A stretch of DNA of 64,000 nt, taken from NCBI GenBank assembly GCA_017509255.1, contig JAFWQA010000007.1:1-64000 (forward strand). Direction: 5' to 3'. The notes beneath the pieces were generated by a model. It had not been told where the DNA came from. It did not search any database and was given only the letters and a program-made list of their open reading frames with translations. Within the stretch, counting starts at the first letter, position 1. Every line of letters begins with the position of its first letter. Below are positions 29,637-39,842 of the stretch, in pieces. Source of the stretch: Clostridia bacterium (GTDB taxonomy: Bacteria > Bacillota > Clostridia > Christensenellales > Aristaeellaceae). A program made the position numbers and the translations under genes.

Positions 29637-31514
<1,878 letters not shown>

Positions 31515-31585: not shown

Positions 31586-31615
31586 GTGACATCAGAAAGG
31601 GCTCAGCGAAGCCGG

Positions 31616-34600
31616 TCAGTCGTAGTCGCGGCGGGGGAGCTCGATGCCGAAGTCTTTGGCGGTCTGTTCCAGGATATCCAGCGCGCGCTCGATCTGCTCG
31701 GGCTTATGCTCGCTGATCACGCAGAAGCGGAGGCGGGCCTTGCCCTTGGGAACCGCGGGATACATGGCCGGGGGAACGCTGACGCCGCGCTTTTTGAGCT
31801 CATTGGAGAGCAGCCAGGCATCCTCATCCTTGCCGACGAGGACCGGCAGGACGGCCGTTTCGCCGGCCAGACAGATATCCAGATGGCGGCGGCGGGCGCT
31901 GTCCGCGAAGGCCTTGATGGCGGTGCGGAGGTTCTCCATGATCTGCGGGTTGGAGCGCAGCTGGCGGATGGCCTCCAGGGAGCCGGCGGCCAGCGCGGGG
32001 CTCATGCCGACGCTGAAGACGAAGCCGGGCATGTTGTAGCGCAGGTACTCGATCAGGCTGCGTTTGCCGGCCAGATAGCCGCCGCAGGTGCCGAGGCCCT
32101 TGGACAGGGTGCCGTATTTGATATCGATATCGTAGCCGTCCAGGCCGAAGTATTCGTCCACACCGCCGCCGGTTTTGCCGATGACGCAGGCGCTGTGCGC
32201 CTCATCCACCATCAGGAAGCAGCCGTACTGCTTCTTGAGCCGGACGAACTCCGGCACGGGGGCGATGTCGCCGTCCATGCTGTAGACGCCCTCGATGACG
32301 ATGAGCACCTTCTCGTAGAAGTTCCGCTGCGCCTTGAGGATGTTCTCCAGCGCGGCGTAGTCATTATGCGGGAAGGGGCGCGCCGTGGAGCCGGAAAGCT
32401 TGCAGCCCTGCTCGATGGAGTTGTGGGCCAGCGCGTCGTAGAGGATCATGTCGTTCTTGCCGCAGAAGTTGCCGATGAAGGTGACGTTGGTGGAATGCCC
32501 GCCGACGCAGACGATGGCGTCCTCGGTGTGCTTCCAGTCCGCCAGCTCCTTTTCCAGCTCGCGGTGGATCATTTTTTCACCGGCCAGGAGGCGGCTGCCG
32601 CTGGCGCTGGTGCCGTATTTGTCGATGGCGGCCTTGGCGGCTTCCTTGACTTCCTTGCGGCCGCTCATGCCGACGTAGTTGTAGCTGCCGAACTCCAGGA
32701 TCTCTTTGCCGTCCACAATGCCGGTATCCAGCAGGGGGGACTCGTGGCAGATGAAGTAGGGGTTGTCGCCGCCGGCGGCCAGGTCCTCCTCACGCTTGAG
32801 GAAGGTCATGTATTCGGGGGTGTCCTCGAAGCGGGTGATCGGGATGACCGGCTCCCGCTCGGCGGGGGCGGCGGCAGCGGAAGCTTCGGGCGCCTGGGTC
32901 AGACGCTCGATCACGTGGGCCATATCGTTCACGGTGGCGCAGTTGCCGTATTCCTCGGCGGGAATGGTGATGCCCCATTCCTCCTCGATCTTCAGGGCCA
33001 TGCTGAGCACCTGCAGGCTGTCGCCCTGCAGATCCTCAATGAAGTTGGCCGTATCGGAGATCTCGCTTTCCGGGATCTCCAGCGTATCGGCATAGAGCTT
33101 GCGGATCTTCGCTTTGATGTCCTCGCGGGCGGACTCCCTGCTTTCGGAGGGAAGGGAAACGGCCACCTCGCTGCCGGCGGACTGCGTGTGCAGGTCCAGC
33201 TCGCGGTAGTTCATTTCCTTTTCGTCATACATGCGCTTGAGCTCGATGCGCTTGACCTTGATGCCGCTGACCAGGGGCAGGGGATCCGGCGTGACGAGCA
33301 CGCGGTTGAGCTGCGTGTACAGGGGCAGGCGCACGTTGACCGCGGCAACGCGGCCGGCCAGGGAATTCAGGAAGGCGGTATCGCCGTAATTGTCCCCCAC
33401 GTTCAGCACGAGGGCCACGTCCTCATTGCTGTCCCGCTTGTTGCGGCGCAGGCCGACCACGCAGGCCTGCTCCACGCCCGGCAGGCCGGAGAAGGCATCC
33501 TCCAGATCGTCCGGATAGATGTTTTCGCCGGATTCGTTGACGATGACGTCCTTCAGGCGGCCGCGGATGTAGATACGGCCGGATTTGTCCATGCGGACGA
33601 TGTCCCCGGTGGGATACCAGCCGCCGTCCATCGTGTCCGGAGGCAGGATGGCGCCTTCTTTGACACGGGCGGAGTGGATGCTCTTTCCGCGGATCTGGAG
33701 CTCGCCGACGCCCTCGGCGGCATGGTCGCCCACAAGGCGGTATTCAATGGTCTCAAAGGGCTTGCCGACGCTGCCGCCGAGGCGGTGGCCCAGGCGGACG
33801 CTGGTCTCAAAGCCCGTGATGGCGGTCTCCGTCATGCCGTAGCCGGTGATGGTGCAGTAGCCCACGGAGTTCAGGGCGCGCAGGGTCGAGGTCGGGGTAT
33901 GGCTGCCGCCGAGAATGATGCACTCCACGTCCGTGCCCAGCATATTCTTTGTGACGGAGGCGAAGAGCTTCTTTTCGGCGAAGCGGAGCGCCTTGTCGGG
34001 AGCGATCAGCTGGGCGCCGAGGGAGATCGCGCTCATGACATGGAACAGGCCGCGTTTGACGGCGGGCTGTTTTTTGATATTCTTTTTCAGCGCCTTGGCC
34101 AGGCTGGTGCCGACCAGCGGGACCACCACGATCAGGTGGGGTTTGAGGCGCTGGCAGGTTTTGAGGATGGAATCGGGCGTGCGATCCTGCAGGAAGAGGT
34201 TCGCCATGCCCATGAAGCCGCCCCAGATGACGTTGGCCATGAAGCCGAACACATGGTGGAAGGGCAGGAAGGCCAGGAAACGGCGGGTCTCGTCACCGAT
34301 GACGCGCTTGGCTTCCCGGTGGACCAGCTCGCTGTTGAGGGCCTGGGCGCACAGCGCCGCGTGGTCATAGGCGAAGATGCGGCTGCGGCCGGTGGTGCCG
34401 CTGGTGCAGATGGCGACGTGATCGCCCCAGACCGGAGTGAAAGCGCCCTTGCGGACGGCCGTGACAACATGGCTGAAGTCGATCTGGCGGTAGTCCGCGG
34501 GAAGACGCCGGGGCTTTCTGGTGATGAGCATGCGGCAGCCCGCCTCATCCATCAGGCTCTGGATCATCGGATCCGCGGCGGAAGCGTCCAGCAGCAGCAC

Positions 34601-34885
34601 GCTGTGCCCGCTGCGCATGGTGCCCCAGAAGAGGCTCGGCCATTCCACACAGGTATCGACCGAGATCGCGATCCAGCCGCCGTCGGGAGAGAGCTCCTTC
34701 AGGTAAGCCGCGCAGTCATCCGCTTTATCCGTCATCTCCGTGAAGGAGAGGGAACGCTCGGCATCGCCCTCCAGCCACATGGCGGCGGGCAGGTCACCGT
34801 AGCCCCGGATGACGGAGAAAAGGGTCTCCAGCGTTTTGTCGGCATTCAGCCTCTCAACGGAAGCCGACACATTCAGTTGACTCAT
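31616..34885 (-). CDS. Fused adenylation enzyme / acyl carrier protein / alpha-oxoamine synthase
   Basis: A single 1089-residue protein with three catalytic parts. (1) An ANL-superfamily adenylation domain (about 1-560): CTSGTTGRSR (160-169), YGMTET (349-354), YPTGDI (424-429), GRLKDVI and a C-terminal catalytic Lys in SGIKVKR (about 543). (2) An acyl carrier domain (about 588-662), with the phosphopantetheine Ser623 in LQGDSLQVLS. (3) An alpha-oxoamine-synthase PLP domain (about 695-1085) with DALAHNSIEQG, MVDEAHSACVIG and the Schiff-base Lys929 in YGTLSKGLGTCGG. By family logic it would activate a carboxylic acid with ATP, load it on the carrier and condense it, with decarboxylation, with an amino acid to give an alpha-aminoketone. 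The chain length and amino acid cannot be read from sequence. It is monocistronic, with its own promoter. An Ala/Glu/Pro linker joins the last two domains. Confidence 0.88.
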   Translation of the reverse strand: MSQLNVSASVERLNADKTLETLFSVIRGYGDLPAAMWLEGDAERSLSFTEMTDKADDCAAYLKELSPDGGWIAISVDTCVEWPSLFWGTMRSGHSVLLLDASAADPMIQSLMDEAGCRMLITRKPRRLPADYRQIDFSHVVTAVRKGAFTPVWGDHVAICTSGTTGRSRIFAYDHAALCAQALNSELVHREAKRVIGDETRRFLAFLPFHHVFGFMANVIWGGFMGMANLFLQDRTPDSILKTCQRLKPHLIVVVPLVGTSLAKALKKNIKKQPAVKRGLFHVMSAISLGAQLIAPDKALRFAEKKLFASVTKNMLGTDVECIILGGSHTPTSTLRALNSVGYCTITGYGMTETAITGFETSVRLGHRLGGSVGKPFETIEYRLVGDHAAEGVGELQIRGKSIHSARVKEGAILPPDTMDGGWYPTGDIVRMDKSGRIYIRGRLKDVIVNESGENIYPDDLEDAFSGLPGVEQACVVGLRRNKRDSNEDVALVLNVGDNYGDTAFLNSLAGRVAAVNVRLPLYTQLNRVLVTPDPLPLVSGIKVKRIELKRMYDEKEMNYRELDLHTQSAGSEVAVSLPSESRESAREDIKAKIRKLYADTLEIPESEISDTANFIEDLQGDSLQVLSMALKIEEEWGITIPAEEYGNCATVNDMAHVIERLTQAPEASAAAAPAEREPVIPITRFEDTPEYMTFLKREEDLAAGGDNPYFICHESPLLDTGIVDGKEILEFGSYNYVGMSGRKEVKEAAKAAIDKYGTSASGSRLLAGEKMIHRELEKELADWKHTEDAIVCVGGHSTNVTFIGNFCGKNDMILYDALAHNSIEQGCKLSGSTARPFPHNDYAALENILKAQRNFYEKVLIVIEGVYSMDGDIAPVPEFVRLKKQYGCFLMVDEAHSACVIGKTGGGVDEYFGLDGYDIDIKYGTLSKGLGTCGGYLAGKRSLIEYLRYNMPGFVFSVGMSPALAAGSLEAIRQLRSNPQIMENLRTAIKAFADSARRRHLDICLAGETAVLPVLVGKDEDAWLLSNELKKRGVSVPPAMYPAVPKGKARLRFCVISEHKPEQIERALDILEQTAKDFGIELPRRDYD

Positions 34886-35016
34886 ATGTATCCTCCTGAA
34901 AACATTGTCCGGCAGCGTGAAGGCTGCCTGAGCAGAGTGCCTGTGACCGGTTTCCGGAGGAGATAATGGCGTATAAAATCAGCATGGGTCTCCGGGTGAC
35001 CAAATCACATCAGCCT

Positions 35017-35198: not shown

Positions 35199-37223
<2,025 letters not shown>

Positions 37224-37295: not shown

Positions 37296-39842
37296 ATGAT
37301 CAATGATAAGCTGATACCAGTCAACCTGGAACAGGAGATGAAAAAGAGCTTCATCTCCTACGCGATGGCCGTCATCGTGGACCGCGCCCTGCCGGACGTG
37401 AGGGACGGACTGAAGCCCGTTCACCGCCGCATCCTGTACGATATGTCCGAAGAGCTGGGCATGACGCCGGACAAACCCACCCGCAAGAGCGCGCGTGTGG
37501 TCGGCGACGTGCTCGGTAAATTCCACCCCCACGGCGACTCCTCCGTGTACGACGCGATGGTCCGCCTGGCGCAGCCCTTCAACATCCGCTATCCGCTGGT
37601 GGAGGGCCAGGGCAACTTCGGCTCCATCGACGGCGACGGCGCCGCCGCCATGCGTTATACCGAAGCCCGGCTGCAGAAGCTGACCATGCACATGCTGGAC
37701 GGCATCGACAAGGACACCGTGGACTTCTACCCCAACTTTGACGAGACGCTGCAGCAGCCCTCCGTGCTGCCCGCCCGCTTCCCGAACCTGCTGGTGAACG
37801 GCTCCAGCGGCATCGCGGTCGGCATGGCGACCAATATCCCGCCGCACAACCTGACCGAGGTGATCAACGGCGTCATCTGCATGATCGACAACCCCGACTG
37901 CACCATCGACGACCTGATGCAGCACATCAAGGGGCCGGACTTCCCGACGGGCGGCTTGATCATGGGCCGCTCCGGTATCCGGGAGGCCTATTACACCGGC
38001 CACGGACGCATTACCGTACGCGCGAAGACGAACATCGAGGAGATGCCCGGCAACCGCAGCCGCATCATCGTGACGGAGATCCCGTACCAGGTGAACAAGG
38101 CCGTGCTGGTGAAGAAGATCGCCGACCTGGTGCACGAAAAGCGCGTGGAGGGCATCAGCGACATCCGCGACGAGTCCAACGACCGCCAGGGCATGCGCAT
38201 CGTGATCGAACTGAAGAAGGACATCCAGCCGCAGGTTGTGCTGAACACCCTGTACAAGCACACCTCCCTGCAGGAGAACTTCGGCGCCAACATGCTCGCC
38301 CTGGTGGACGGCAAGCCCAGGATCCTGAACCTGCGGGATATGATCTACTACTATCTGGAGCACCAGAAGGACGTGGTGACCCGGAGGACGAGGTTCGACC
38401 TGAACAAGGCGCAGAACCGCGCGCACATTTTGGAAGGCCTGCTCAAGGCGCTGGACCACATCGACGAGATCGTGGCTATCATCCGCGCCAGCAAGGACAC
38501 GCAGACCGCCAAGGACGCCCTGATGCTGCGCTTTGAGTTCAGCGACAGGCAGGCGCAGGCGATCCTGGACATGCGGCTGGCCCGCCTGACCGGACTGGAG
38601 CGCGAGCGCCTGCAGGAGGAATATCAGGAGCTGGAAAAGACCATTGAGCGGCTGACCGCCATCCTGGCGGATGAGAAGCTGCTGATGGGCGTGATCCGGG
38701 ACGAGATCAGCGAGATCCGCGACAAGTTCGGCGACGAGCGCCGCAGCGAGCTGACCATCGCCGAGGATGACATCGATATCGAGGACCTGATCCAGGAGGA
38801 GAACATGGTCGTGACCCTCACCCATGAGGGCTACGTGAAGCGCGTATCCTCCTCCGTGTACCGCGCGCAGCACCGCGGCGGACGCGGCGTGAGCGGCATG
38901 AACGTGAAGGAGACCGACTACACGGCCCAGATGTTCGTGGTGAGCACGCACCAGGAGATCATGTTCTTTACCAACCTCGGGCGCGTGTACAGCCTGAAGT
39001 GCTACCAGATCCCCGAGGCCGGCAGGCAGGCCCGTGGCACCGCGATCATCAACCTGCTGCAGATCTCCGGCGGGGAGAAGGTATCCACTATGCTGCCGAT
39101 GCCCAGAGAGAGCGGCGAAGAGTTCAACCTGGTGATGGCGACCCGCAGCGGCATGATCAAGAAGACTGCGCTGAATGAGTTCCGCAACCTGAGGAAGAAC
39201 GGCCTGATCGCCATCGCGCTGCGCGAGGGCGACGAGCTGATCGGCGTGCGGCTGAGCGTGGGCACCGACGATATGCTGCTGAGCAGCCGGATGGGCAAGA
39301 GCATCCGCTTCAACGAGAAGCATGTGCGCAACCTGGGCCGCAACAGCCTGGGCGTGCGCTCCATGCGGCTGAAGCCCGGCGACGAGGTGATCGACATCGC
39401 CGTGATCGAACCGGACACCACCGTGCTGGCCGTGACCGAGAACGGCTACGGCAAGCGGACCGATCCCGAGGAATACCGGGAGCAGGGCCGCGGCGGACAG
39501 GGCGTGCGCGCCATGAACCTGACCGAAAAGACCGGAAACCTGGCCGCGCTGCTGTTTGTGCACGAGGATGAGGACATCCTGCTGATCACCGACGACGGCA
39601 CGATCATCCGGGCCCGCGCGGCGGATATCCGCGTATGCGGCCGCGCCACGCAGGGCGTGCGCATCATGCGCCTGGCTGAGGGCAGCAAGGTGGTCGGCGT
39701 ATGCCGCGCCGAGAAGGAGGACGAGGAAGAGGAGACCGAAGCCCTTCCCGTGACCGAAGGCGAAGCGGCGGAGGATACCGGGCTGGACATGGAGATCCCC
39801 GAGACCGCCCCGGAAACAAAGCCGGAGGAGCCCGAGATCTGA
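37296..39842 (+). CDS. gyrA: DNA gyrase subunit A
   Basis: This 848-residue breakage-reunion subunit shows [43 protein letters not shown], and the active-site Tyr in [12 protein letters not shown] six-blade beta-pinwheel C terminus carries the gyrase box [10 protein letters not shown], which separates it from ParC. The Ser/Asp positions of the quinolone region read [14 protein letters not shown]. The C terminus is a strongly acidic tail. It is followed by a clear terminator. Confidence 0.97.

What the first reader, a model, noticed from the sequence alone, without database searches (positions are those of the whole stretch)
31616..34885. Stand-alone adenylation-ACP-AONS fusion predicted to make an alpha-aminoketone from a free acid
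One gene encodes an ATP-dependent acid-activating domain, an acyl carrier domain with an intact Ser623, and an alpha-oxoamine synthase with an intact PLP lysine (Lys929). ACP-AONS fusions are known in prodiginine pathways (PigH type) and other natural-product pathways. Stand-alone members of the AONS superfamily make sphinganine precursors, aminoketone autoinducers (CqsA) and the biotin precursor. Here a free acid can be loaded without a CoA ligase or PKS, so this gene alone may make a lipid-like or signalling aminoketone. No reductase, thioesterase or phosphopantetheinyl transferase is nearby.
Basis: partly seen in the sequence, partly recalled or inferred. Interest (0 to 1): 0.78.

Follow-up and report, generated by a model that had tools for sequence, protein, structure and literature searches.

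The report
One-protein sphingolipid-base synthase in gut Clostridia
A Clostridia-type gut bacterium carries one large gene that probably loads a free fatty acid and joins it to serine to start a sphingolipid-like lipid, a class best known from animals and Bacteroides.

Summary
An intact 1089-aa minus-strand gene (34885 to 31616) encodes an AMP-binding domain, an ACP (Ser623) and an alpha-oxoamine synthase (AONS, Lys929). The fusion is in 33 of 45 genomes of its genus. All 80 loci kept (of 145) from a named-genome scan, which overlaps that genus, carry it.

The AONS is not a glycine acetyltransferase. It forms a clade (100/100) with PKS-linked AONSs, sister to serine palmitoyltransferases (99/95). 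A PKS-linked enzyme in print, PfSgaB (not in my tree), is a serine-specific SPT.

"No reductase" is true only locally. In 32 of 80 named loci an SDR is immediately upstream on the same strand. The window's own genome has it on another contig, as do 42 of 45 genus genomes at 403 bits or more. Its nearest curated family is 3-ketosphinganine reductase in 2 of 3 tested, always below cut-off. In the family, 14 of 14 AONS-bearing genomes have it, against 1 of 7 without.

Best reading: a fused acyl-ACP synthetase/ACP/SPT that makes a 3-keto sphingoid base. Six Bacteroidales-labelled genomes carry it and show no SPT over cut-off. The A-CP-AONS layout was listed in 2013 without function. Acid, amino acid and product are inferred.

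The parts
31616..34885 (-). AMP-binding / ACP / alpha-oxoamine synthase fusion gene, 1089 aa
   Evidence: ORF and translation; Pfam; fusion in 33 of 45 genus genomes and 80 of 80 kept named loci
33677..34807 (-). AMP-binding (adenylation) domain, Pfam match residues 27-403; A10-type lysine K543 lies further on
   Evidence: PF00501 129 bits; C160, T161, G163, T165 and K543 invariant in 43 fusions
32912..33109 (-). acyl carrier domain, residues 593-658, Ser623 in GDSL
   Evidence: PF00550 45.5 bits; G621-D622-S623-L624 invariant in 43 fusions
31673..32704 (-). alpha-oxoamine synthase domain, Pfam match residues 728-1071; H821, D894, H897, Lys929, R1053
   Evidence: PF00155 158 bits; active-site table; tree; Foldseek best hit SPT 8guh
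34892..34897 (-). AGGAGG ribosome-binding site of the fusion gene
   Evidence: sequence upstream of the ATG

Best explanation
The gene encodes a single-polypeptide sphingoid-base synthase. The N-terminal domain adenylates a free fatty acid (ATP) and loads it on the phosphopantetheine of Ser623. The C-terminal PLP domain condenses the acyl-ACP with an amino acid, most likely L-serine, with loss of CO2, giving 3-ketosphinganine or a close analogue. A separately encoded SDR, on another contig here (G000:C3:25313-26116) but immediately upstream in relatives, reduces the ketone to a sphinganine-like base. Shown here by computation: domains, catalytic residues, AONS clade, SDR linkage and co-occurrence. 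Inferred: fatty acid as substrate, acyl transfer inside one chain, serine as amino acid, product, and every later step.
For: Domains and invariant Ser623/Lys929. Careful tree: fusions with PKS-linked AONS 100/100, sister to SPT 99/95; Kbl, ALAS and BioF outside. Residues that hold PLP and the carboxylate (H821, S869, D894, H897, T926, S928, K929, R1053) in 26 of 26 fusion rows. PKS-linked PfSgaB has SPT activity, almost only with L-serine, and its cluster has a KDSR-like SDR (PMC12134224 sections 8-9). SDR immediately upstream on the same strand in 32 of 80 named loci, 10 with a 4-base overlap. SDR at 403 bits or more in 42 of 45 genus genomes, own included. In family f1 SDR in 14 of 14 AONS-bearing and 1 of 7 AONS-less genomes (Fisher 1.3e-4, not corrected for descent). 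Own SDR: best NCBIfam NF049977 3-ketodihydrosphingosine reductase, 229 bits; S-Y-K present. Six Bacteroidales-labelled genomes with the fusion: 0 of 6 has an SPT over cut-off, 5 of 6 a KDSR-like SDR at 292-317 bits. AasR-AcpR-SPT does the same job as three proteins (PMC9386255). PF01648 gene in the genome.
Against: No chemistry was tested. The AONS misses every SPT cut-off (300 of 640 bits for the best). The SDR misses the KDSR cut-off (229 of 400), with other SDR families about 30 bits behind; in one of three partner SDRs tested (L118) another SDR family is ahead by 2 bits. That cut-off is strict: it is reached in 0 of 14 control genomes, Bacteroides ihuae among them. Family f21 fusions (G110, G124 and the partial G091) and G188 lack the SDR at 1e-60. 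G069, and the incomplete G007 and G067, have the SDR without a matching AONS. 48 of 80 named loci have no such SDR next to the fusion, the window's genus among them (5 of 80 loci hold under 1 kb upstream). Asn52 of S. multivorum SPT, near the serine hydroxyl, is Tyr735 here; the GSR motif shared with SPT is also in one ALAS. Later sphingolipid genes were not searched for by family. The acid is not read from sequence: the A domain's best solved relative is FadD13 over residues 318-484 only.
Confidence: 0.66

Rival explanations
1. Same enzyme logic, but the amino acid is alanine or glycine (a 1-deoxy type base or plain aminoketone), or the acid is not a long fatty acid, so the product is a small natural product rather than a sphingolipid.
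For: AONS scores highest against BioF (345 of 426 bits) and reaches no SPT cut-off; the Asn52 equivalent is Tyr735; A-domain substrate unknown.
Against: PKS-linked PfSgaB is almost exclusively serine-specific (PMC12134224); the partner SDR leans to KDSR; no PKS KS-AT stretch in the window or in 20 genus flanks.
Confidence: 0.22
2. The base is the lipid anchor or carrier of a surface polysaccharide, as proposed for the rkp-1 genes of Sinorhizobium meliloti, not a free membrane sphingolipid.
For: S. meliloti and Shinella relatives lie in PKS + AONS + SDR + capsule-gene clusters; a review says rkp-1 products help make a specific lipid carrier (passages of PMC4881576).
Against: The only gene conserved beside the fusion in the genus is mnmG-like (15 of 20 flanks plus the window); capsule genes were not searched by family. 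Own SDR is 30% identical to the RkpH-like SDR against 43% to a Bacteroidales KDSR-like SDR. The chemistry would still be that of a sphingoid base.
Confidence: 0.2
3. A quorum-sensing type aminoketone made without reduction (CqsA-like).
For: Same superfamily; the gene stands alone between convergent mnmG and divergent gyrB.
Against: CqsA matches are far weaker than SPT (about 2e-23 against 1e-62); conserved reductase partner.
Confidence: 0.05

Closest known systems
PfSgaAB(C) of Pseudomonas fluorescens MYb115 (PKS + alpha-oxoamine synthase + KDSR homologue; PMC12134224)
   Same: AONS in one clade with PKS-linked AONSs, among them a Pseudomonas plasmid cluster with PKS, AONS and an SDR five genes on (L236; that it is an sgaAB homologue is my inference); acyl group on a carrier protein; SDR partner.
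   Different: No PKS here: a free acid is activated by an adenylation domain and the three domains are one chain. Own SDR is 25% identical to the L236 SDR.
AasR + AcpR + SPT of Caulobacter and E. coli B (PMC9386255)
   Same: Same three activities: acyl-ACP synthetase, dedicated ACP, SPT.
   Different: Separate proteins there. The A domain here matches E. coli B AasR only over 165 columns at 24%, so it looks separately recruited; the presumptive reductase there is an epimerase-type gene.
Bacteroides SPT (BT_0870) and KDSR (BT_0972; PMC9278070)
   Same: Likely the same two chemical steps; own SDR's best curated family is NF049977, whose link to BT_0972 is my inference.
   Different: Bacteroides SPT is a stand-alone enzyme (acyl-CoA use recalled); the fusion scores 300 of 640 bits against NF047600.
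A-CP-PLP2 proteins of Microscilla marina (A1ZVW4) and Blastopirellula marina (A3ZWL3) (PMC3870968, table 2)
   Same: Same domain layout in one chain.
   Different: Listed there from Pfam scans without function; not compared by sequence here because no sequence was at hand.
CP-PLP2 proteins such as PigH and saxitoxin types
   Same: Carrier domain fused to AONS.
   Different: No adenylation domain in that layout (CP-PLP2 and CP-CP-PLP2 rows of PMC3870968); names and acyl sources are recalled.

Membership tests
alpha-oxoamine synthase superfamily | fold-type I PLP domain with catalytic Lys, stacking His, Asp to N1 | tested here: met
   PF00155 158 bits; H821, D894, K929 in 26 of 26 fusion rows; Foldseek best hit 8guh E 1.7e-27
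canonical serine palmitoyltransferase (NF047600 / NF047599 / NF047603) | score over the curated cut-off | tested here: not met
   300 of 640, 274 of 500, 232 of 670 bits
PKS-linked AONS clade (SgaB/RkpG-like) | one clade with PKS-linked AONSs, apart from SPT, Kbl, ALAS, BioF | tested here: met
   100/100 support. PfSgaB itself was not in the tree; 8 rows with a PKS in the chain or beside it were
functional SPT (works like) | condenses L-serine with a fatty acyl thioester | not testable with these tools
   needs an enzyme assay; a PKS-linked relative does so in print (PMC12134224)
glycine C-acetyltransferase / BioF / ALAS | score over cut-off and grouping with the family | tested here: not met
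   all below cut-off; outside the clade of the fusions
AasR acyl-ACP synthetase | homology along the chain to AasR | tested here: not met
   one 165-column match at 24% to E. coli B AasR
3-ketosphinganine reductase NF049977 (partner SDR) | score over the curated cut-off of 400 bits | tested here: not met
   229 bits own SDR, 194 bits L091, 173 bits L118; over cut-off in 0 of 14 control genomes
3-ketosphinganine reductase NF049977 (partner SDR) | glycine-rich NAD(P) motif and S-Y-K catalytic residues | tested here: met
   GASSGLG, SS, YTASK in own SDR; S135, Y148, K152 invariant in 20 rows

The most novel reading that the evidence does not exclude
A whole lineage of gut and rumen Clostridia makes sphingoid bases with one fused enzyme that takes free (dietary or host) fatty acids straight into sphingolipid synthesis, bypassing CoA; the fused gene moved into gut Bacteroidales, where it stands in for the missing canonical SPT beside a KDSR-like reductase.
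Probability: 0.45. Interest if true: 0.82.

Novelty: new variant of a known kind. Interest (0 to 1): 0.64.

Why it matters
SPT presence is used as the sign of sphingolipid-making bacteria (said so in passages of PMC12134224). These proteins are below every SPT cut-off tested and could be filed as BioF, Kbl or 'aminotransferase', so producers may be missed in metagenomes. If the reading is right, gut and rumen Clostridia could turn free fatty acids into sphingoid bases with one protein, and studies of bacterial sphingolipids in animals would have to count them. It would also give a compact single-chain SPT module for enzymology.

Tried and rejected
Rejected: artefact of gene calling. Rejected: Gly C-acetyltransferase, BioF or ALAS as identity. 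Rejected: AasR-type A domain. Considered: descent of the loading half from the gut fatty-acid-amide (OaaA/OaaC) pathway; in the ORF lists around the two A-ACP didomains of G056 and around single A domains of other Clostridia (L270-L274) I saw no condensation, ACP or AONS neighbour, but no family search was made and no Oaa sequence was at hand, so nothing was shown. Considered: RkpH as the SDR; own SDR is nearer to a Bacteroidales KDSR-like SDR. Considered: condensation-like protein and zinc-ribbon protein near the fusion (clusters 13 and 12, 5 of 20 genus flanks) as pathway genes; opposite strand in each, often with another gene between; the first has no Pfam or NCBIfam hit at 1e-3, the second was not searched. 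SDR surroundings in 20 stretches from 19 genomes (SDR called in 18) gave no further lipid gene that I could name. Structure model is moderate (pLDDT 75.6, pTM 0.49), so no docking or tunnel reading was tried.

Rows dropped: L227 before the first tree (a stop in the extracted stretch); before the careful tree also L218 (very long branch), L226 (near-copy of L237) and ten rows close to others; L275 was added. L218 (G188) is a fusion whose AONS aligns without the PLP lysine.

Papers: PMC9386255 (abstract, sections 13, 15), PMC12134224 (abstract, sections 8, 9, passages), PMC3870968 (sections 7, 8, passages), PMC13142362 (abstract, introduction); passages only of PMC9278070, PMC10196870, PMC4881576, PMC3908369, PMC12816596. 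All others only as search listings.
Full report
OBSERVATION. The ORF 31616..34885 exists, on the minus strand, 1089 aa. Pfam finds AMP-binding 27-403, PP-binding 593-658 and Aminotran_1_2 728-1071. The start has an AGGAGG six bases upstream. The opposite strand is open for 1126 aa, but it is the minus-strand protein that is conserved. The neighbours are mnmG/gidA (29637-31514, +, convergent, 101 bp away) and gyrB, gyrA (35211-37223 and 37296-39842, +, divergent, 325 bp away). The gene thus stands alone here. Its GC3 is 0.87, its neighbours' 0.85-0.91.

DISTRIBUTION. The assembly G000 is 2.5 Mb in 62 contigs, 74% complete; the fusion is its only full match and its only AONS. With the A-ACP part as query, 33 of 45 genus genomes match, each at an open frame of 1086 aa or more, plus one weak A-domain hit. 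Of the other 12, eight have a stand-alone AONS of 411-444 aa at 62-64% identity (G014, G018, G019, G026, G027, G032, G033; G062) and four show none (G007, G025, G061, G067; 58-77% complete). A scan of named genomes with the 28-row alignment A1 gave 145 relatives, of which the best 80 were kept; many are the same genomes as in the genus set. All 80 hold a fused ORF of 1045-1173 aa, some cut at contig ends. 30 of the 80 titles name an animal gut site or faeces (goat, sheep, cattle, buffalo, yak, deer, horse); the rest name none. Labels are mostly Clostridia or Clostridiales, some Christensenella or Christensenellaceae, six Bacteroidales or Bacteroidia. That the order is Christensenellales is my inference. 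In an even sample of 247 order genomes 19 match at 1e-90: 13 fusions in the own family, G019 with stand-alone AONS, fusions in family f21 (G110, G124, and G091 cut by a contig end), a distant fusion in G188 (f30), and two A-ACP didomains in G056. In an even sample of 392 class genomes there are 7 matches: the window's own, five single A domains and one AONS (G608, 44%), which lies beside a PKS (KS-AT-DH-KR by Pfam).

WHAT THE AONS IS. No NCBIfam AONS equivalog reaches its cut-off: BioF 345 of 426, SPT 300 of 640, Kbl 292 of 460, ALAS 233 of 339 bits. Best solved relatives are Sphingobacterium SPT (1e-62), Thermus AOS (1e-60) and E. coli Kbl (4e-58). Among plasmid records the closest that I inspected are AONSs inside or near a PKS: Planktothrix PKS C-terminal domain 49.9%, Methylobacterium 45% (KS-AT match 5 kb upstream), Streptomyces KS-AT-ACP-AONS 45%, Paraburkholderia 45%, Pseudomonas 44%, Shinella 43%, S. 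meliloti 42%. In the careful tree of 43 rows the fusions with the genus stand-alone AONSs form one clade (100/99), joined to the PKS-linked rows (100/100), sister to the SPT rows (99/95); Kbl, ALAS and BioF lie outside. A quick tree of 54 rows agrees, SPT sister at 94. The stand-alone AONSs fall inside the fusions, so fusions alone are not one clade. Residues that hold PLP and the substrate carboxylate in S. multivorum SPT (PMC10196870 passages) are kept in 26 of 26 fusion rows; Gly80-Ser81-Arg82 is GSR as in both SPT rows and in Priestia ALAS, while the five PKS-linked rows shown have ASR or AAR; Asn52 is Tyr735. Foldseek of the model puts SPT 8guh first (1.7e-27), with Thermus AOS at 2.4e-27, so fold alone does not decide.

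WHY SPHINGOID BASE. PfSgaB, the AONS of the Pseudomonas PKS cluster sgaAB, is a demonstrated SPT with almost exclusive use of L-serine, and its cluster holds a KDSR-like SDR (PMC12134224, sections 8 and 9). The Pseudomonas plasmid cluster in my tree (L236) has PKS, AONS and, five genes on, an SDR, with the same locus-tag spacing as in that paper; that it is an sgaAB homologue is my inference. In 32 of 80 named fusion loci an SDR is the immediately upstream gene on the same strand, 10 with a 4-base overlap and 3 with gaps of 357-442 bp. A profile from 20 of these 32 (A2) finds the SDR at 403 bits or more in 42 of 45 genus genomes, the window's own included (G000:C3:25313-26116); the other three are G025 (fragments), G061 and G028. 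In the genus it is not next to the fusion; in G064 it lies about 6 kb away. In the order sample, SDRs of 330 bits or more occur in 15 of 247 genomes, 14 of them with AONS; in the own family in 14 of 14 with AONS and 1 of 7 without (G069, whose only AONS match is Kbl, 632 bits). Six more SDRs of 205-220 bits sit in fusion-less genomes, and f21 and G188 fusions lack the SDR at 1e-60. The genomes with stand-alone AONS keep the SDR. The best NCBIfam family of the own SDR is NF049977, 3-ketodihydrosphingosine reductase, 229 of 400 bits, with the next families at 199 and 196. For L091 it is also first (194), for L118 second by 2 bits (173 against 175). Its cut-off is reached in 0 of 14 control genomes. 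So this naming is a lean, not a proof.

BACTEROIDALES. Six loci are from Bacteroidales- or Bacteroidia-labelled MAGs (L112, L120, L127, L136, L137, L140). For L112 one neighbour was tested: its five best plasmid matches are Bacteroidales. The gene's GC follows its flanks in the six. Four of the six fusions were placed in the careful tree and five in the quick one; they lie together inside the Clostridial fusions, which suggests transfer. None of the six genomes has an SPT over cut-off. They hold one or two further AONS each; of these two were named: one is Kbl (671 bits), one is unassigned. Five of six have a KDSR-like SDR at 292-317 bits; G292 has only 108. A missing SPT in MAGs may also be incompleteness.

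THE LOADING HALF. The A domain is an ANL enzyme whose best solved hits are FadD13 and 2-succinylbenzoate-CoA ligases over residues 315-494. It is not AasR. The genome has a PF01648 gene, 58 bits, that could arm the ACP. The scheme equals AasR-AcpR-SPT of Caulobacter and E. coli B, where acyl-AcpR is the preferred SPT substrate (PMC9386255, abstract), but seems assembled from other parts and is fused.

NOVELTY. The layout A-CP-PLP2 was listed in 2013 for Microscilla and Blastopirellula, and an AMP-binding enzyme of Synechococcus carries such a PLP domain, without function (PMC3870968). My searches showed no paper on such a fusion in Clostridia or on sphingolipids made by them, in the listed titles and abstracts; the library holds open-licence papers only. 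So: a new variant of a known kind.

LIMITS. 

Noticed in passing
window 31586..34966, + strand: A 1126-aa open frame runs antisense through the whole fusion gene; long antisense frames recur in this 61% GC window and are probably a codon-usage effect.
   Followed up: partly
window 34911..34928: Perfect 6-bp inverted repeat (GGCAGC/GCTGCC) upstream of the fusion gene's AGGAGG; could be a small leader hairpin.
   Followed up: no
L218:8419-11613 (G188): A distant A-ACP-AONS fusion whose AONS aligns with Gly where the PLP lysine should be; possibly a degenerate or repurposed AONS domain.
   Followed up: partly
L072:2369-3637 and L072:1568-2260: A condensation-like protein (HSVTDG motif) and a zinc-ribbon membrane protein lie near the fusion in several genus genomes; the first has no Pfam or NCBIfam hit at 1e-3.
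   Followed up: partly
L043:9129-11135 and L044:8860-10893 (G056): Two A-ACP didomain proteins without AONS in one genome of family f21; function unknown.
   Followed up: partly
L234:4356-9179 (Streptomyces anthocyanicus plasmid): KS-AT-ACP-AONS single protein beside an MMPL transporter gene; looks like a compact PKS-type base synthase.
   Followed up: partly
L275:2572-10550 (G608): A PKS (KS-AT-DH-KR) followed by an AONS (44% to the window's) in another Clostridia family, a likely sgaAB-type pair.
   Followed up: partly
L196, L202, L206, L215: A protein of about 765-796 aa with an XRE-like start and, in the window's genome, an AMP-binding match lies on the same stretch as the SDR in 4 of 20 fetched stretches.
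   Followed up: no
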